64,000 bases of DNA, from the IMG/VR virus record IMGVR_UViG_3300046787_000316, positions 1 to 64,000 of that record, one strand, 5' to 3'. A model generated the notes under the pieces. The model was not told the DNA's origin. It searched no databases and was given only the letters and a program-made list of their open reading frames with translations. Origin of the DNA: a virus. Positions within the stretch are counted from its first letter, which is position 1. Each line of letters opens with the position of its first letter. A program made the position numbers and the translations under genes. Of this stretch, positions 1 to 14,921 are shown piece after piece.

Positions 1-1109
1 GCTCTTAATTTTTCGTTTAATATTTTAATCATTCTACCATCGTTTAATGATAGTTCTTTTGCTCTTTCGATACTCTTCATAGATTGTTCTAATTTGAATT
101 CACTATTATCTAATAATCTGTCCAAAGTTTCGAACAAATCCTTTTTGAATTTGAAGAACATTCCATCTGGCTCAATCTCTCTGTAACAATCTGATTCCTG
201 ATATATCATAGGTGTTCCGTTCATCATACAATCGGTTGCGGCAACACTCCATCCGTAATTGGTTTGCCTCATTTGAACTCCAACGGTACAAGATTGTAAC
301 TTTTTATAGTAATCATGCTTAGCCACTTTCGTATTATCAATCCAACTATGTTCCGGCTTACCATCCAATTGCGGCACCCATACAGTGAAATCTTGTCGTT
401 TTTCTCTATACTCTTCCATTAATTTAATGAAAGCGGGATATCCTTTATATGCAGCTGCTCTGTGATTGAATACAATGATGTTTTGCTTTGGTTGTGGAGT
501 TTCTATTATTTTAGAATTATCCACTCCCAAATTCCACACTACAAATATATCATTTAATTTTTGAATAAACAAATCATTGAACCATAATTTTGCTTCCTCC
601 AATACTCTATTCTTTTGGTCTTGAGTATTTAAGAAACAAGTATCCATTTGAGATACTCCCAATAATTCAATTGGCATCCATCTCCATTTATTTTTTCTAT
701 CTTCAGCGTTGCATGATTTCATTTCCCACCAATGTCCATATCCAATAACTTTGGTGTTGAAATCATTCTTATATCTACCAACTTGTGGCCAATCAGGTAA
801 ATGGGAGTAGATTACATCGTATTCCAATGTTTCCATTAATCTATTCATATCCGGTGGATACGTTCTCATTTTAATCATATCACCTGAAAATGGTAGGATG
901 TGTTGTTTCACATTTATCAAATTCAACTTTTTTACCGGCTGCGGTAATATGATATTCCAAAAGAATTCACCTTCCGATTCCAATCCTTTAATGTGGTTGT
1001 ATATAACATCCACAAAGGAATCCTTTTCAATATTGCCAGAGTTAGTGATATTTGGTATCACTAACACTTTTCTGGCTTTATTGTAATCTATTGTTTCCCA
1101 AAAACTCAT
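1..1109 (-). CDS. Glycosyltransferase, GT-B/family 4 type, partial at the window edge
   Basis: The frame opens at ATG 1109 (protein begins MSFWETIDYNKARKVLVIPN) and stays open to base 1, so the 3' end lies outside the window. About 369 codons are visible. The segment IIVFNHRAAAYKGYPAFI resembles the start of a GT-B C-terminal domain, and GWSVAATDCMMNGTPMIYQE matches the donor-binding region near the end of GT4 enzymes, where a conserved acidic residue sits in related proteins. It should move a sugar from a nucleotide donor to an acceptor that cannot be read from sequence: DNA base, virion protein or host glycan. It lies directly downstream of the DUF262-HNH gene and may share its transcript. 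The fold call is fairly firm, the substrate unknown. Confidence 0.75.
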   Translation of the reverse strand, partial: MSFWETIDYNKARKVLVIPNITNSGNIEKDSFVDVIYNHIKGLESEGEFFWNIILPQPVKKLNLINVKQHILPFSGDMIKMRTYPPDMNRLMETLEYDVIYSHLPDWPQVGRYKNDFNTKVIGYGHWWEMKSCNAEDRKNKWRWMPIELLGVSQMDTCFLNTQDQKNRVLEEAKLWFNDLFIQKLNDIFVVWNLGVDNSKIIETPQPKQNIIVFNHRAAAYKGYPAFIKLMEEYREKRQDFTVWVPQLDGKPEHSWIDNTKVAKHDYYKKLQSCTVGVQMRQTNYGWSVAATDCMMNGTPMIYQESDCYREIEPDGMFFKFKKDLFETLDRLLDNSEFKLEQSMKSIERAKELSLNDGRMIKILNEKLR

Positions 1110-1124
1110 TCGATTATATTAATT

Positions 1125-2618
1125 TTACTTAGTTTGTTTAAATTGTTTGATGAAATCATCACCATGTATATTAAGTTTCTGATTATTTAAAGTTTTAGAT
1201 GTTACAACTAAATTGGTGTATTCAGTAACACCCCCACGATTGATACCATAACTACGAGGAACATAGTGGTCTCCAGCGATATCCTTTTCATCTAATGGTT
1301 CTCCTGTAAAATAACATTTACAATCTTGCTCGTACCATTTTTTGAGTATATCTCCTTTGGCAAATGTTTCACGCGGGTCTAATTCTACAACACCAAATGA
1401 TTCTAAATTACCTTTAAGTTCCATATCTAATACACTACAAATACCACCAATAGCGTTTGCATTCTTACCACCAAACATTTCATTGAATGGCTTCATAGGA
1501 GTCTTATTTGGCATCTGATAATTTACCCAAAGTTTATCGGAGGTATCACTCCACTTTTTATACACATCGAAAAATTTAGTAGTAAATACGTCAACTCTAA
1601 GTTTTCCATATTTAGATTTCAATTCATAACCATATAGAATCAACATCTGCGATAGCATCGGTGTTAATCTTTGTTTATATTCCGTTGGAACTGATGTGAT
1701 TACTTTTTGAGAAAAATCAAGTAATTCATCTACATTCTTTTTTAATTTTTTAAATTTCTCTTCAGTCGAATAATCACCATTTTCGGCTTGAACTTTCTTA
1801 ACCCATTCCGTAAGTTGTGCAGGTTGTACACCTTTTCGAAACCCATTTATGTACATAAAAATAAGTTCCGATAACCACTCATCGACTTCCATTCTACAAT
1901 TAAGTGTAAATGATTTAGAAAAGTGAAGTAATGATTTTACAGGATTCGTACCATCGATTTGAATGGTTGTAAATAAAGCATGTTTTTCAAATCTAGCAGT
2001 ATTACGGATGTATGACGATAAGAAACCACGAATTGCATTACGAATTTCCTGTGGTTTCATTGTATTTACTTTATTCAAAATATTAATAAACAAATCAGCA
2101 GTCATTTCATCATCCATATTTTCATACCATGCACATAAAATTCGGTAATCTAAAATTTTGTTATATAGATTTGGAAAGTTTTGTCGTAGTTCTTCGGCAG
2201 ATAATCCGCTGATATCACATCCATCAACTACTAAATTCTTAGGTAAATTATATTCACCTTTTAAAAATCCTAAAATAGATGTAACACGTTGTTGACCATC
2301 TACTAATTCATAGTAAAATGCATTACCACGTTTAGTAACTCTGATGTGAATTTGTGGAATTTTAGCGTATCCTTTTAATAAGATAGTTAATAATAAGTTT
2401 TGTTTAAAAGTTAAACTAGCCACCTTTTCTCGTTGATACTCTCTAGCACCCGTTTCAAGTGTTTCGCCTTCTTTTTCTTTTAACCATTTAATACTCACAT
2501 TACCATCGGTAGATGTCGGAGCATCCGTTTCACCAAAACATTGTTCAGCGATTTCGCATTCAATAAAATCTCTTTTCATAATTAATACTTGTGTTTTAAA
2601 TCGTTCAACCTTCCTCAT
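1125..2618 (-). CDS. DUF262-HNH nuclease, GmrSD-like modification-dependent endonuclease
   Basis: A 497-residue protein. The N-terminal part has the DUF262 (ParB-like) signature: YQREKV at 61-66 and VDGQQRVTS at 106-114, where DGQQR is the family's conserved nucleotide-binding/hydrolysis motif. The C-terminus carries a compact HNH nuclease: CKCYFTG near 433, the DH pair at about 450, then NLVVTSKTLNNQKLN. Known relatives (GmrSD, BrxU, SspE) cleave modified DNA and use NTP hydrolysis or sensing. Met14 (ATG 2579) is a plausible alternative start, since the alignable part begins there. It has its own promoter at 2699-2730 and an unusually long leader. In a phage it could attack competing phages or the host; that role is inference. 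Confidence 0.75.
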   Translation of the reverse strand: MRKVERFKTQVLIMKRDFIECEIAEQCFGETDAPTSTDGNVSIKWLKEKEGETLETGAREYQREKVASLTFKQNLLLTILLKGYAKIPQIHIRVTKRGNAFYYELVDGQQRVTSILGFLKGEYNLPKNLVVDGCDISGLSAEELRQNFPNLYNKILDYRILCAWYENMDDEMTADLFINILNKVNTMKPQEIRNAIRGFLSSYIRNTARFEKHALFTTIQIDGTNPVKSLLHFSKSFTLNCRMEVDEWLSELIFMYINGFRKGVQPAQLTEWVKKVQAENGDYSTEEKFKKLKKNVDELLDFSQKVITSVPTEYKQRLTPMLSQMLILYGYELKSKYGKLRVDVFTTKFFDVYKKWSDTSDKLWVNYQMPNKTPMKPFNEMFGGKNANAIGGICSVLDMELKGNLESFGVVELDPRETFAKGDILKKWYEQDCKCYFTGEPLDEKDIAGDHYVPRSYGINRGGVTEYTNLVVTSKTLNNQKLNIHGDDFIKQFKQTK

Positions 2619-2656
2619 TTGGTTGGTATTTACCGATTTGTTTAACTTTCTTTGAT

Positions 2657-2680
2657 GTGAGTGTTAAGTAGGATGCTCAC
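2657..2680 (-). promoter_or_regulatory. Stem-loop in the leader of the DUF262-HNH gene
   Basis: GTGAG (2657-2661) pairs with CTCAC (2676-2680) across a 14-nt loop. It lies between the host-type promoter and the start codon. The stem is only 5 bp, so function is uncertain; it could be an operator or an RNA element. Confidence 0.25.
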
Positions 2681-2698
2681 TTCCCCCGTTATTATATT

Positions 2699-2730
2699 CA
2701 AATATACAAAATTATATTGACATAGCCAAA
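2699..2730 (-). promoter_or_regulatory. Bacteroidota-type promoter for the DUF262-HNH gene
   Basis: On the minus strand the -33 element TTTG (2730-2727) is followed after exactly 20 nt by the -7 element TATATTTG (2706-2699). This is the TTTG/TAnnTTTG consensus of Bacteroidota primary sigma factors. The element and spacing recur upstream of four other genes in this window. Confidence 0.8.
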
Positions 2731-2739
2731 TTATTTAGC

Positions 2740-2766
2740 AAAAAAAAGTGGGCTATCTACCCACTT
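2740..2766 (-). terminator. Intrinsic terminator after the DruA-like gene
   Basis: On the minus strand AAGTGGG pairs perfectly with CCCACTT around a 7-nt loop and runs into eight U residues. The stop codon of the DruA-like gene lies in the loop. It separates that gene from the DUF262-HNH gene, which then starts from its own promoter. Confidence 0.85.
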
Positions 2767-3979
2767 CTTTCAAATAATTATCTTTCATTTGTTCCCAAGT
2801 CATTCCAATTGCATCTACATAAAATAGAACCTCTGGTTTGATTTTACCTTCATCGTATAACTTAGTATATCGTTTAATTGCTTTATCTTTCCACCACTTT
2901 ACAGTGTAATCGTTACCATCAGCGAATTTCTTTTTAAGAATCAAATCCTTCTCTTCAATTTTAGATTGTAAGAATTCATTACCATTCTCATACATTTGTG
3001 CGAAATAAACACCTCTCTGAAATCCGTGGTCATAAGCGTTACCCTTTATACCCAATTCTTTGAAGATTGCTTGAATAATCTTTTGTTTGATTCCACTTAC
3101 AGGTCCGTTTCTATCGTAGCCCATATTAGCGCCATTACGTTCTCTCTCATCCATAATGTGTAACTTATACCACTCTGAACGATTTTCTTTTAACCATTGA
3201 TGCCATGGGTTATAAACTTTATCATCCGGCTTTGTAGAAATCTTACCTTTTGATTCTCCCAATGTTTTGAAATGTGGAATACCATTGTATTGAGAATGTA
3301 CTCCATATAAAGATGTTGTACCTACCCCAACTAATGGATTATCATATTTCTTTTTCCAATAATCTCTAACTTCCGGTGAAGTTGCCAATGCTGCGATTAA
3401 CTTGCCACCTAAGAAATTATAACCAAATGGTTGTGTAGATACAATAGTAGTTGCAATTGTAGTACAATTCAATTTACCATTTTTAAACTTATCTTCTTTT
3501 TGCCATCCAATGTAATTATCTCTAACTCCTAATGATGTAATATCCGAACCTAAGCAAATCTGTCCTAATATCTTACCACTAACTCTATCCTTCACATAAC
3601 ATTTAACATTACGACCTGGATTAGCCTGAAATTCCATTGTGTGAATCAATCTACGGATTTCAGTCCATCGAGTTGATTCTTTTGCATTATCATCTACGAT
3701 ATCAACATACGGGTCAATTGCTTCTATTTCAGCAATAGTTAACTCTCTGTTGGTGATATCAGTAGGTTTCCATAATGAATCATAATGAGATTGTAATACT
3801 GGCAACTTTTTCATATTACCAATTAAATCCTCATTCCACTCCATCCACTTTTTGTATAGAGTTTGCTCTTCGACTGACATTGTTCTTAGATAATCCAAAT
3901 TATCAATGAACTTCTTTTTCATTTCATCATAATCGAATTCTTCGGTATTAGTTTGTTCGCCTGTATCCCAAAATTTCAT
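2753..3979 (-). CDS. DruA-like (DUF4338-type) protein
   Basis: A 408-residue protein. The central region reads LGVRDNYIGW, then STQPFGYNFLGGKL, a W-x3-Y segment and LVGVGTTSLYGVHSQYN. This order (RD-x-IGW, a hydrophobic NLGGK-like strand, then a Y/W-rich active-site-like segment) recalls DUF4338, the family of DruA from the Druantia defence system, also seen in phages beside DNA-modification genes. No catalytic mechanism is established for the family. It has its own host-type promoter (4006-4037) and a terminator overlapping its stop codon, so it is expressed as a unit separate from its neighbours. I recognise the pattern but cannot verify it without a profile search; an unrelated phage family is the alternative. 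Confidence 0.5.
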   Translation of the reverse strand: MKFWDTGEQTNTEEFDYDEMKKKFIDNLDYLRTMSVEEQTLYKKWMEWNEDLIGNMKKLPVLQSHYDSLWKPTDITNRELTIAEIEAIDPYVDIVDDNAKESTRWTEIRRLIHTMEFQANPGRNVKCYVKDRVSGKILGQICLGSDITSLGVRDNYIGWQKEDKFKNGKLNCTTIATTIVSTQPFGYNFLGGKLIAALATSPEVRDYWKKKYDNPLVGVGTTSLYGVHSQYNGIPHFKTLGESKGKISTKPDDKVYNPWHQWLKENRSEWYKLHIMDERERNGANMGYDRNGPVSGIKQKIIQAIFKELGIKGNAYDHGFQRGVYFAQMYENGNEFLQSKIEEKDLILKKKFADGNDYTVKWWKDKAIKRYTKLYDEGKIKPEVLFYVDAIGMTWEQMKDNYLKEVGR

Positions 3980-4005
3980 ATTAATTCTTTAAATCGTTTA
4001 TATTA

Positions 4006-4037
4006 CAAATATACGAAAAATATTTGGATTTACCAAA
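4006..4037 (-). promoter_or_regulatory. Bacteroidota-type promoter for the DruA-like gene
   Basis: -33 TTTG at 4037-4034, 20-nt spacer, -7 TATATTTG at 4013-4006, on the minus strand. The ATG follows at 3979. The promoter overlaps the 3' end of the Mom-like gene upstream. Confidence 0.8.
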
Positions 4038-4833
4038 ACTTTACGGATATTTCTGAGTCTGGTTCAATCGTTGTATGAACTTCTACTCCTTTGTTGTATT
4101 CTCTTGCATTTTTAGGATATGGTCTGATTTCATGCTTCAATCGTTTAATCAAATCCTTTTTATCCTTCTTGTCAGCTCCAATAATCTGAATGTATCGATG
4201 TTTTGGTGGTTCTTCTCTTCTCCAAAATTGCTTATACCCATCCTTACCAATTTCTCTTCTAAGGTGTTCTAAGTTACCACTACCCCACTTTGTAAACACA
4301 GTCCTGCTATGTATCCATTTGAAAGGGTCATCCGATAATGAAATACCATAATTTGGCATTAGTGCAATATCGGTATTTAATCCTTGATAAATCCAATTGG
4401 TTGCTTGATAAATACCACCTAGATGTTCTTGTCCATTATCAGCATACGATATAAGAACTTTGATATTCTTATCATTCTCTCTGAACCATTTGAATGATTG
4501 TCCTAATGCGTATGATTCAATATTAGAACCATATCCATCATCACAATAAAGACGGGTTAATTCTAATACATTATCTTTAGTCAATCCCTCACAAACTGAT
4601 GTAGGTGCTTTTGCTCCTACGGGAAATCCATAAACTAAACATCCAATTAATTTATCGGAATCACCGATTGCATTAGCTTCATCCATTTTATAGAATATTC
4701 CTAATGCGTATCTACAAGCAGTCCAAGCGTGAGTGTAGTGTTTTTTTACGATAATCTCCTTTGCTACGTGACTTCCGATTTCCCTAACGGAAACTTTCGA
4801 TGTATCACAATAATTTTTGTTAACTTCTTTCAA
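4030..4833 (-). CDS. Mom-like DNA-modification protein, copy A
   Basis: A 267-residue protein with the conserved pattern of phage Mom-family proteins: ELTRLYCDDGYGSNIES, then LISYADNGQEHLG, GIYQATNWIYQG and KHRYIQI. Mu Mom is a GNAT-fold enzyme that converts adenine to N6-carbamoylmethyladenine and so protects phage DNA from restriction. The order and spacing of these motifs support the family call; the exact base and chemistry cannot be predicted. It overlaps the second Mom-like gene by 14 bases, so the two are translationally coupled. The two proteins share their N-terminus (KEVNKNYCDTSK versus KEPNKLYCDTSK) and all motifs, so they are tandem paralogues. Confidence 0.7.
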   Translation of the reverse strand: MKEVNKNYCDTSKVSVREIGSHVAKEIIVKKHYTHAWTACRYALGIFYKMDEANAIGDSDKLIGCLVYGFPVGAKAPTSVCEGLTKDNVLELTRLYCDDGYGSNIESYALGQSFKWFRENDKNIKVLISYADNGQEHLGGIYQATNWIYQGLNTDIALMPNYGISLSDDPFKWIHSRTVFTKWGSGNLEHLRREIGKDGYKQFWRREEPPKHRYIQIIGADKKDKKDLIKRLKHEIRPYPKNAREYNKGVEVHTTIEPDSEISVKFW

Positions 4834-5581
4834 TTGGTTCTAATTTTATAACTTCTTCAATAAATTCATCTTGTTGTTTTGGATAAGGTAGTTGTGGGTA
4901 TTTTAATTCCTTTAATAATTTTTTTCGTTCTCTACCATTCAAAAGTATATAAACATACCGATGCTTTCTTGGTTCTTTCCTAATCCAAATGGGTAAAGAG
5001 ATTTGCTCTCTAATCTTAGCGGGGTCGTTTGTTCCATAATATGGAAATATTGTTCTACCATGTTGCCATTCACCACCTTCGGTTAATTGGAATAACCAAC
5101 TATCACTCCATCTGATTTTGTTTCCTTGATAAATCCAATTTGTCGCCTGATATACAGTTCCTAAATGACCTGCCTTTGGGTCTGAATATGATATTAATGC
5201 TTTGATTGATGGAACATTGGTTCTTAACCATTCAAATGTTTTACCAACGAACCAACTTTCGATATTACTACCATACCCATCAAATACAAATAAACGAGTG
5301 AGTTCTAACACTTCCGTTCTATCCAATGATTCACATATAGATGCGCCGGAGTTTCTACCAATAGGGTCACCATAACAGGCGACACCAATTAGTTGTTCAT
5401 TTACTCCACCAAAGAATTTGTGTTCATCGTTTGAAACATAAAACAAACCAATAGCATAAGATACCTTCGTCCATATCCCACTATAATGGTTATTGACAAC
5501 GATATCTTTTGCTACGTTTTTGTTTATTTGCCTTACGACTAATTTTGAAGTATCACAATATAACTTATTAGGCTCTTTCAT
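4820..5581 (-). CDS. Mom-like DNA-modification protein, copy B
   Basis: A 253-residue paralogue of the downstream gene. Motifs are ELTRLFVFDGYGSNIES, LISYSDPKAGHLG, TVYQATNWIYQG and KHRYVYI. Compared with copy A it has an insertion before GVACYGDP and a different middle region after the IYQG motif. Keeping two diverged copies suggests different targets, different substrates or a heterodimer; none of these can be decided here. It overlaps the upstream HTH gene (stop at 5568) by 14 bases, so HTH, copy B and copy A form one coupled run. Family assignment is by motif only. Confidence 0.68.
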   Translation of the reverse strand: MKEPNKLYCDTSKLVVRQINKNVAKDIVVNNHYSGIWTKVSYAIGLFYVSNDEHKFFGGVNEQLIGVACYGDPIGRNSGASICESLDRTEVLELTRLFVFDGYGSNIESWFVGKTFEWLRTNVPSIKALISYSDPKAGHLGTVYQATNWIYQGNKIRWSDSWLFQLTEGGEWQHGRTIFPYYGTNDPAKIREQISLPIWIRKEPRKHRYVYILLNGRERKKLLKELKYPQLPYPKQQDEFIEEVIKLEPIERS

Positions 5582-5798
5582 ACGGCCACTTTATCATGTG
5601 TGTCCACGTTTGGTTTGTAACTATTTTCTTAATGTTAGCTGGTGAAACTCCGTAATTTCTAGCTATGACATTAACGTTTCTATGACCCATTTTGTATAGC
5701 TCTCTGATTTGCAGTATCTGCTCTTCAGTCAATTTGTGCATCGGATGCGCTTCTCCTCTTAACATATATCTAATATAACTATTTTTTTTGATATTCAC
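5568..5798 (-). CDS. Small helix-turn-helix protein
   Basis: A 76-residue basic protein. Residues of LTEEQILQIRELYKMGHRNV followed by IARNYGVSPANIKKIV form a resolvase/homing-endonuclease-type helix-turn-helix, and TWTHM follows as in the DNA-binding tails of phage HNH proteins. No nuclease domain is attached. It could regulate the coupled Mom-like genes that follow or be the remnant of a homing endonuclease that lost its catalytic domain. Its stop overlaps the start of Mom-like copy B. Confidence 0.6.
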   Translation of the reverse strand: MNIKKNSYIRYMLRGEAHPMHKLTEEQILQIRELYKMGHRNVNVIARNYGVSPANIKKIVTNQTWTHMIKWPYERA

Positions 5799-5807
5799 AA
5801 ATTTATT

Positions 5808-6071
5808 TTACTTTAAATGCTCATTTAATGAATTTATGTAAGTTAATTTAGCTTGTGCTCCGGCGAATCTATCAACCTCTACACCATCTTTTTCAATGAT
5901 AATAGTTGGAACTGAACGAATACCATATTTTGTAGCCTCATCAAATGCGGTATCTACATCATACTCTTCAAATACTACATTTGAGAATTGTCCTTTTACT
6001 TCGTTAATTACTGGAGCTAGTGCTCTGCAAGGTCCACACCATGCTGCGGAGAATTTTTTTAATGTTACCAT
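5808..6071 (-). CDS. Thioredoxin / glutaredoxin-like protein
   Basis: An 87-residue thioredoxin fold with the redox motif WCGPC (Cys12 and Cys15) and the cis-proline loop SVPTIII. It is shorter than cellular thioredoxins (about 105) because the first strand and helix are missing, as in many phage versions. Placed two genes after NrdA, it is the likely reductant of the phage ribonucleotide reductase, whose C-terminal CxxC tail needs an external dithiol. Its start overlaps the end of the upstream gene by 7 bases, indicating coupled translation. Confidence 0.88.
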   Translation of the reverse strand: MVTLKKFSAAWCGPCRALAPVINEVKGQFSNVVFEEYDVDTAFDEATKYGIRSVPTIIIEKDGVEVDRFAGAQAKLTYINSLNEHLK

Positions 6072-6925
6072 AATTTTAATTGTTTACTACGTTTTATTGA
6101 TAATAAGTAATGCTCATTTAGCATACTATATTCTTTTTCAAATTTACTACTAAATTGTGCTTCGAATTCTTTACAATGAAATATAATCGATTTACGATTA
6201 TGTTCATATATGTCTATACATTCTAACCACATACTGTAGAGTTCCTCTTTTGGTTTGTTTTTTAAATCCAATATAAGTTTTTCTACTGCCTTCATTCTAA
6301 TCGAATCATCCATTTCATCATAACTCTCATCGATGATATTTGAAAATGTTTTGAATCCCATTATTTTTAGATTCTTTAAAACATTCTTCTGCCCTATCAC
6401 AATGAATGGTCTTGGGAATGCTAATGCTTTAAATGTTTCTTCTGATATAAATGTTGAATCAATTGATAAGATTGCCGTATCATATTTTTTTTCATTTACA
6501 ATCTGAAACATATCACCTTCGAAATCCGTTTCCAACCTATATGGAAAATCACCAGAATCAAAAAATTCAAGTGGGGTGTTGGAATTGATGTGATATGGGT
6601 AATAATAAAAATTGAATTGTAAAAATCCTAATAGATTCTCATATTCTGTGCTTCTATTCTCATAGAAAATATGTAACTTCTTAGTATTTATTTTCTTTTC
6701 TAAAAAGAACTCATGTATTCTATATAAATTTAATATTGATTCAGGGGTGATTGGTTCACCCCCTTCACAATAAAATATTTTATAATCTCTATAAGTTTCT
6801 TCGTAAAAATTCAACAATTCAGAGATTTCATCAGCCGTATATGTTAATAATATAGGATGTGTAATGATAATACTTTTGGAGTTACCATCTATTGATATGA
6901 AATCTTTGAAATTATTATCCTTCAC
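6065..6925 (-). CDS. Conserved phage protein of unknown function between NrdA and thioredoxin
   Basis: A 286-residue protein I cannot assign. The middle has IFYCEGGEPITPESILNLYR and a late segment FIVIGQKNVLKNLKIMGFKT followed by a DESYDEMDD acidic stretch. I recognise that second pattern from uncharacterised phage proteins, without a known function. It is rich in Tyr and Phe and has no signal peptide or membrane segment. It overlaps the end of NrdA by 11 bases and the start of thioredoxin by 7, so it is embedded in the nucleotide-reduction operon. That placement hints at a role in nucleotide supply, but this is context only. Confidence 0.6.
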   Translation of the reverse strand: MKDNNFKDFISIDGNSKSIIITHPILLTYTADEISELLNFYEETYRDYKIFYCEGGEPITPESILNLYRIHEFFLEKKINTKKLHIFYENRSTEYENLLGFLQFNFYYYPYHINSNTPLEFFDSGDFPYRLETDFEGDMFQIVNEKKYDTAILSIDSTFISEETFKALAFPRPFIVIGQKNVLKNLKIMGFKTFSNIIDESYDEMDDSIRMKAVEKLILDLKNKPKEELYSMWLECIDIYEHNRKSIIFHCKEFEAQFSSKFEKEYSMLNEHYLLSIKRSKQLKLW

Positions 6926-14889: not shown

Positions 14890-14921
14890 CAAATATACGA
14901 AAGTTTTTTGTAATTACCAAA
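14890..14921 (-). promoter_or_regulatory. Bacteroidota-type promoter for gp32-uvsX-rnh-groES
   Basis: -33 TTTG at 14921-14918, 20-nt spacer, -7 TATATTTG at 14897-14890 on the minus strand. It sits just after the stop of the DUF1599-like gene and leaves a leader of roughly 95 nt before the gp32 ATG. Confidence 0.85.

What the first reader, a model, noticed from the sequence alone, without database searches (positions are those of the whole stretch)
1..6071. Accessory block: glycosyltransferase, DUF262-HNH nuclease, DruA-like protein, two Mom-like proteins, HTH
The sequence shows a GmrSD-type nuclease (DGQQR plus HNH), a DruA/DUF4338-like protein and two Mom-like DNA modifiers in 5 kb, with a glycosyltransferase at the end. 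GmrSD-type enzymes attack modified DNA, Mom-type enzymes modify adenine, and DruA belongs to a defence system. A phage carrying all of them could protect its own DNA with a modification while its nuclease destroys DNA of rival phages carrying other modifications. Such a combined modification and restriction system on a T4-like phage of Bacteroidota would be new as far as I can tell. The two nuclease-side genes have their own promoters, so dosage is controlled separately.
Basis: partly seen in the sequence, partly recalled or inferred. Interest (0 to 1): 0.8.

Follow-up and report, generated by a model that had tools for sequence, protein, structure and literature searches.

The report
Phage DNA-marking operon with swappable nuclease slot
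A T4-like phage, probably of Bacteroidota, carries two Mom-type DNA-marking enzymes beside a slot where related phages swap unrelated nuclease genes in and out, which looks like a modular self/non-self DNA discrimination system carried by a virus.

Summary
Window 1-6071 (minus strand) encodes HTH, Mom1, Mom2, a DruA-domain protein, a DUF262(GmrSD_N)-HNH protein and a glycosyltransferase (GT) on a T4-like contig. In relatives, HTH-Mom1-Mom2 is a conserved core. Among long records, 16/17 carry Mom, 16/17 carry DruA and only 4/17 carry DUF262. The nuclease sits at a fixed place just upstream of the GT. The closest relative lacks it, with DruA and GT abutting. The window's insert is self-contained: terminator, Bacteroidota-type promoter, ORF. 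In 47 non-redundant loci this place is empty 17 times and otherwise holds one of eight ORF clusters, mostly ParB/DUF262-type sensors joined to HNH, GIY-YIG or PD-(D/E)xK-like nucleases. Scans that started from the nucleases found a Mom or DruA gene immediately upstream in 46 of 61 cases. The DruA-like protein is not Druantia: no DruE-type helicase is present, its model has a GNAT/Mom-like fold, and it also occurs in marine T4-like phages without Mom nearby. The best reading is a phage-borne restriction-modification-like locus with a constant acyl-marking part and an exchangeable nuclease. A Mom-nuclease pairing was already proposed for jumbo phages. The swappable slot and the DruA fold appear new. 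Which DNA is cut is untested.

The parts
1..1109 (-). Glycosyltransferase (GT-B, GT4-like), start codon at 1109; 3' end lost at the record edge
   Evidence: Pfam PF00534 E 2e-4, below cut-off; 96% identical orthologue L149:12831-13943; downstream neighbour of 56 of 80 non-redundant slot genes
1125..2618 (-). Slot gene: DUF262 (GmrSD_N, VDGQQR) N-terminal sensor/NTPase domain + C-terminal HNH domain (AGDHYVPRS...N...N). Relatives suggest the start may be the later ATG (about 2579)
   Evidence: PF03235; motifs invariant in 4 aligned homologues at 54-56% identity; PADLOC NsnA 4e-12
2699..2730 (-). Promoter of the slot gene, Bacteroidota type TTTG-N20-TATATTTG
   Evidence: similar promoters precede slot genes in L163 and L107
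2741..2771 (-). Terminator-like hairpin with T-run overlapping the DruA stop codon
   Evidence: -15.8 kcal/mol, z -5.1; similar hairpins before slot genes in L163 and L107, z -2.4 and -2.9
2753..3979 (-). DruA-domain (DUF4338) protein, predicted GNAT-like fold
   Evidence: PF14236 2e-20; model pLDDT 85.6; Foldseek top PDB hits mostly acetyltransferases at marginal E; phage Mom FSL SP-031, prob 0.99, E 0.03
4006..4037 (-). Promoter of the DruA-like gene, TTTG-N20-TATATTTG
4030..4833 (-). Mom2, Mom-family acyltransferase paralogue
   Evidence: PF25680 2e-43; PDB 8bv8 1e-4; forms its own clade
4820..5581 (-). Mom1, Mom-family acyltransferase
   Evidence: PF25680 8.5e-45; model matches Mu Mom 8bv8, E 1e-12, TM 0.62-0.77
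5568..5798 (-). Small HTH protein overlapping Mom1, conserved upstream of the Mom pair
   Evidence: PF02796 3e-5; orthologues in most loci

Best explanation
A phage-borne, modular restriction-modification-like locus. The constant part, HTH-Mom1-Mom2, probably assisted by the GNAT-fold DruA-like protein, would put an acyl-type mark (Mom chemistry, N6-adenine) on the replicating phage DNA. Next to it is a slot for one self-contained nuclease unit with its own terminator and promoter. In this phage it is a DUF262-HNH protein: its ParB/Srx-fold NTPase domain senses the DNA state and licenses the HNH domain to cut DNA lacking the phage's own mark (host or rival phage). In relatives other nuclease units fill or vacate the slot, so specificity can change without touching the marking enzymes. 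Shown: gene content, fold and family assignments, slot exchange, linkage, separate promoter. Inferred: the mark, the cutting, its direction and the benefit.
For: Families. Mom1 and Mom2 are two old clades, each kept (support 99/97), both under purifying selection. The serine that appears to correspond to Mu Mom S124 (8bv8 is the inactive S124A mutant) is invariant in 42 Mom1/Mom2 proteins. Slot: 47 non-redundant loci, 17 empty, 30 with exactly one nuclease-like cluster. Clusters: DUF262-HNH (window type; C5 PF03235 2.7e-9 plus HNH 2e-5; C4 DGQHR plus HNH motif, hhalign 78% to the window type); ParB + PD-(D/E)xK-like (C6, PDB ParB hits E 9e-4); GIY-YIG-like + DGNHT (C3, SegE weak hits). Nuclease-first scans: 46 of 61 usable genes have Mom (31) or DruA (15) as nearest identified upstream gene. 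Another route to the same pairing: an N4/N6-methylase-like plus a GNAT gene upstream of distant C3 genes. The closest relative has the exact empty site. Insertions elsewhere in the same gene string are mostly not nucleases. DUF262 is a ParB/Srx-fold NTPase that gates a nuclease in GmrSD, BrxU and SspE (PMC10952713).
Against: No activity data. Slot genes also occur where no Mom or DruA was found (49-kb record G026, 27-kb G027) or with DruA only (148-kb G004); these records may be fragments. The nuclease-first scans were seeded with Mom-linked members, and the phages are related. C2, C12, C13 and C14 are called nuclease-like by motif or weak profile links only. Homing by mobile endonucleases would also give a filled-or-empty slot.
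Confidence: 0.5

Rival explanations
1. Type IV-like exclusion: the Mom mark protects this phage from host restriction, and the slot nuclease separately destroys DNA of rivals that carry other modifications.
For: DUF262-HNH architecture as in GmrSD/BrxU, which cut modified cytosine; separate promoter; the nuclease is dispensable while Mom stays.
Against: The C-terminal domain is not DUF1524. Mom linkage also holds for ParB-PD-(D/E)xK-like and GIY-YIG-like slot genes with no Type IV precedent tested here.
Confidence: 0.2
2. Homing or mobile-endonuclease hot spot: slot genes are selfish nucleases that cut phages with an empty or different slot and spread by repair; Mom is a bystander.
For: One gene per site, filled or empty alleles between near-identical flanks; the GIY-YIG-like C3 has weak hits to T4 SegE; T4-like phages are rich in such genes (general knowledge).
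Against: Slot proteins carry ParB/DUF262 NTPase domains, and each unit checked brings its own terminator and promoter. Flanks differ (Mom2-GT, DruA-GT) while the Mom/DruA neighbourhood stays, including in distant phages.
Confidence: 0.15
3. Host takeover: the nuclease degrades unmarked host DNA to feed nucleotides (nrd genes lie upstream) while Mom protects the phage genome.
For: The Mom genes sit downstream of nrdA, nrdB and thioredoxin on the same strand.
Against: Many close relatives have Mom and nrd but an empty slot, so the role is not essential; a separate promoter.
Confidence: 0.1

Closest known systems
Mom-nuclease proteins of jumbo phages (PMC7824862)
   Same: Phage-encoded Mom acyltransferase paired with a DNase predicted to attack host or superinfecting DNA
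   Different: There, Mom is fused to an REase-fold domain; here, two separate Mom paralogues, a DruA-like protein, and an exchangeable, separately transcribed ParB/DUF262-type nuclease
GmrSD / BrxU Type IV restriction enzymes
   Same: DUF262 with D-G-Q-Q-R plus a His-Me/HNH nuclease in one chain
   Different: No DUF1524 match; phage-borne; linked to DNA-marking genes; target unknown
SspABCD-SspE
   Same: DUF262 nuclease linked to a self-DNA mark
   Different: Phosphorothioate mark and host-borne; here Mom-type acyl mark and phage-borne
Phage Mu Mom (8bv8)
   Same: Same family and fold, conserved serine
   Different: Two diverged copies in tandem; no Com partner sought
Druantia DruA
   Same: PF14236/DUF4338 domain
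   Different: No Druantia helicase on the record; GNAT-like model; also in marine T4-like phages

Membership tests
Mom DNA-modification family | PF25680 domain above cut-off | tested here: met
   149 and 153 bits against a cut-off of 27
Mom DNA-modification family | Mom fold | tested here: met
   Foldseek 8bv8, E 1e-12, for Mom1
Mom DNA-modification family | Catalytic serine (Mu S124) | tested here: met
   Mom1 S109 and its Mom2 counterpart invariant in 42 sequences, aligned to Ala of the S124A mutant chain; numbering offset inferred
Mom DNA-modification family | Modifies adenine in DNA | not testable with these tools
   needs nucleoside mass spectrometry
GmrSD Type IV restriction | DUF262 with (I/V)DGQQR | tested here: met
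   PF03235 over cut-off in the genome search; VDGQQR
GmrSD Type IV restriction | GmrSD_C/DUF1524 nuclease domain | tested here: not met
   no PF07510 match at E<=10; HNH_4-like motif instead
GmrSD Type IV restriction | Cuts modified DNA | not testable with these tools
   needs a cleavage assay
Druantia | DruA domain | tested here: met
   PF14236 2e-20; PADLOC DruA1 3e-22
Druantia | DruE-type YprA helicase (MZB) | tested here: not met
   no PF09369 in the 137-kb record; the record may be incomplete
Restriction-modification (functional kind) | M genes adjacent to the nuclease, M present wherever R is | tested here: inconclusive
   46 of 61 usable nuclease-first genes next to Mom or DruA; exceptions on fragments and on 148-kb G004 with DruA only
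Restriction-modification (functional kind) | M protects from R | not testable with these tools
   needs an assay with and without Mom
Free-standing homing endonuclease | Cuts the empty site and spreads by repair | not testable with these tools
   empty and filled alleles exist

The most novel reading that the evidence does not exclude
T4-like phages carry a modular self/non-self system: constant GNAT-fold DNA-marking enzymes (a Mom pair and a DruA-type protein, making DruA itself a Mom-like DNA acyltransferase) and a plug-in slot where ParB/DUF262-gated nucleases of different catalytic folds replace one another. By extension, DruA in bacterial Druantia would also be a DNA-marking enzyme.
Probability: 0.35. 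Interest if true: 0.82.

Novelty: new variant of a known kind. Interest (0 to 1): 0.62.

Why it matters
It would show that lytic phages keep an exchangeable restriction arm next to a fixed DNA mark, a direct weapon in phage-phage competition, and it names nuclease families to test. It also gives DruA, for which the searches here found no described biochemical role, a testable one as a GNAT-fold modifier.

Tried and rejected
Druantia membership (no MZB helicase). DruA-Mom homology by profile (hhalign prob 0.8%), so that link rests on fold alone. Mom2 as a dead 'S124A-like' copy: I first aligned the mutated residue to the SYADN motif, then saw that the mutant Ala lies at the NxE(S) motif, where both Moms keep Ser. 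dCMP-hydroxymethylase supporting a DNA-glucosylating GT: none on this record, while 5 of 8 records searched carry a thymidylate-synthase family gene; not resolved further. Single-protein searches with the window nuclease found nothing; the alignment-based scan found 17 relatives. PDB profile searches with DruA and C3 found nothing; those with the window nuclease and C4 found only chance-level hits. The sigma-70 promoter scan was at chance; the Bacteroidota motif was not.

Full report
Observation. The window is bases 1-64000 of a 137,364-base IMG/VR record, so the GT at 3-1109 is cut by the record end. On the minus strand, in order of transcription, come nrdB, nrdA, a 286-aa unknown, thioredoxin, HTH (5568-5798), Mom1 (4820-5581), Mom2 (4030-4833), DruA-like (2753-3979), DUF262-HNH (1125-2618) and GT. 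Pfam supports Mom1, Mom2 and DruA strongly and DUF262 at the cut-off. The HNH end is seen by motif (GDHYVPRS...N...N) and by weak hits (HNH_4 E 0.08; PHROG endonuclease VII 3e-4). The phage is T4-like: Gp23. TTTG-N20-TATATTTG promoters sit in front of exactly the DruA and nuclease genes; they point to a Bacteroidota host, as inference.

Anatomy of the slot. In L149, whose DruA and GT are 93% and 96% identical to the window's, the DruA stop and GT start abut. In the window a unit lies between them: a terminator-like hairpin over the DruA stop (z -5.1), the promoter, the ORF and 15 nt. L163 (relative of the same nuclease) and L107 (unrelated slot gene C13) carry the same layout of hairpin, then TTTG-N20-TAT(A/C)TTT(G/A).

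Relatives. From 157 loci taken with DruA and Mom1 queries, the Mom pair with its HTH is the stable core, and DruA lies next to it or a few kb away, beyond DNA polymerase and a probable sliding clamp. In 17 records, 16 have Mom, 16 have DruA and 4 have DUF262. Of 47 non-redundant loci with Mom and a downstream GT, 17 have no slot gene and 30 have one cluster each: C2 9, window type 6, C4 4, C6 4, C5 3, C3 2, C13 1, C14 1. C5 is a DUF262-HNH relative of the window gene (hhalign 99.7%). C4 carries DGQHR and an HNH motif (hhalign 78%). C12 joins C2 (97.6%). C6 has a ParB domain (PDB ParB hits, E 9e-4) and a conserved DxDI...(V/I)E(V/I)K stretch of PD-(D/E)xK type. C3 has a GIY-YIG-like start (SegE, E 0.008-0.03) and a DGNHT motif. 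C2 ends in LDLGH...N...HHNR, HNH-like by eye. GmrS-type DUF262 and ParB share the ParB/Srx fold (PMC10952713; PMC5512222).

Linkage from the other side. Scans seeded with the window-type nuclease, C3, C6 and C4 gave loci L162-L243. Among 65 non-redundant genes of these four kinds (80 with the others), four have too little upstream sequence. Of the other 61, the nearest identified upstream gene is Mom in 31 and DruA in 15. In more distant phages DruA takes the Mom position: L175 DruA-DUF262-GT; L196 and L203 DruA-C3-GT; L229 DruA-C6-GT. The distant C3 genes of L209-L213 are preceded by an N4/N6-methylase-like gene and a small GNAT gene (Pfam on L210 only). Some Mom-less loci have Mom elsewhere on the record (G003, G017, G030), others do not (G004, G026, G027). 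Insertions between nrdA, Trx, HTH, Mom1, Mom2, polymerase and clamp are mostly PhoH-like, GT, SGNH, oxygenase or methyltransferase genes by inspection, with only two or three nuclease-like. The nuclease enrichment is therefore specific to the slot.

Mom pair. Mom1 and Mom2 are 44% identical paralogues forming two supported clades. Both keep the residues shared with Mu Mom (KHY, ELxR, NxES, YQAxN). The purpose of two copies is open: two target contexts, or a heteromer.

DruA-like protein. The model is good (pLDDT 85.6). Its PDB matches are overwhelmingly acetyltransferases, but with marginal E (0.009 and up; prob up to 0.98). The viral library adds Mom of phage FSL SP-031 (prob 0.99, E 0.03) and giant-virus homologues. 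One depositor named a cyanophage homologue 'methylcarbamoylase mom'. A sequence profile comparison to Mom gave nothing. I take GNAT fold as likely (about 0.75) and DNA as substrate as a guess (about 0.45). Pelagiphage and cyanophage homologues stand among replication genes with no Mom nearby.

Mechanism and alternatives. Main reading: the acyl mark labels self and the slot nuclease, gated by its ParB/DUF262 domain, cuts unlabelled DNA. A Type IV-like role, homing, and host degradation remain possible; confidences are given separately. The direction of discrimination is not determined by any result here.

Novelty. The pairing of Mom with a nuclease on a phage is known as a prediction (PMC7824862). 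A search for papers holding most of Mom, ParB, DUF262 and GNAT terms found none, but the library is partial. The swappable slot and the GNAT-like DruA are the new elements. Filed as a new variant of a known kind.

Noticed in passing
L209-L213, e.g. L210:141-1427 and 1424-1867: N4/N6-methylase-like gene plus small GNAT gene directly upstream of a C3 (GIY-YIG-like/ParB-like) nuclease: possibly another acyl-type DNA mark
   Followed up: partly
L130:10846-12450, L133, L115, L162: GHKL/MORC-type ATPase with a C-terminal Mrr-like nuclease between DNA polymerase and the clamp gene
   Followed up: partly
L022:3484-4395; L030:6002-6925: DNA methyltransferase (N6_N4_Mtase) inserted between Mom2 and DruA in L022, and a similar one elsewhere in L030
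   Followed up: partly
G030:26397-27597: A distant phage with DruA-C6 nuclease-GT also has two adjacent, diverged Mom genes elsewhere on the record
   Followed up: no
window 4006-4037, 14890-14921; L107, L163 slot promoters: Recurring extended promoter TTTGGTAA...TTTTCGTATATTTG, maybe a phage expression class
   Followed up: no
one search hits A0A3G4ZXG3, A0A5K0UAJ3, A0A3G4ZRA1: DruA-like fold in giant viruses (Faunusvirus, Yasminevirus, Dasosvirus)
   Followed up: no
window 6065-6925: 286-aa protein with no Pfam or PHROG match; in 39 loci this position (nrdA-Trx) holds a PhoH-like ATPase instead
   Followed up: no
L122:982-1461; L157:8758-9429: Small HNH-like and GIY-YIG-like genes inserted between Mom1 and Mom2, and between nrdA and Trx: likely homing-type elements
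   Followed up: no
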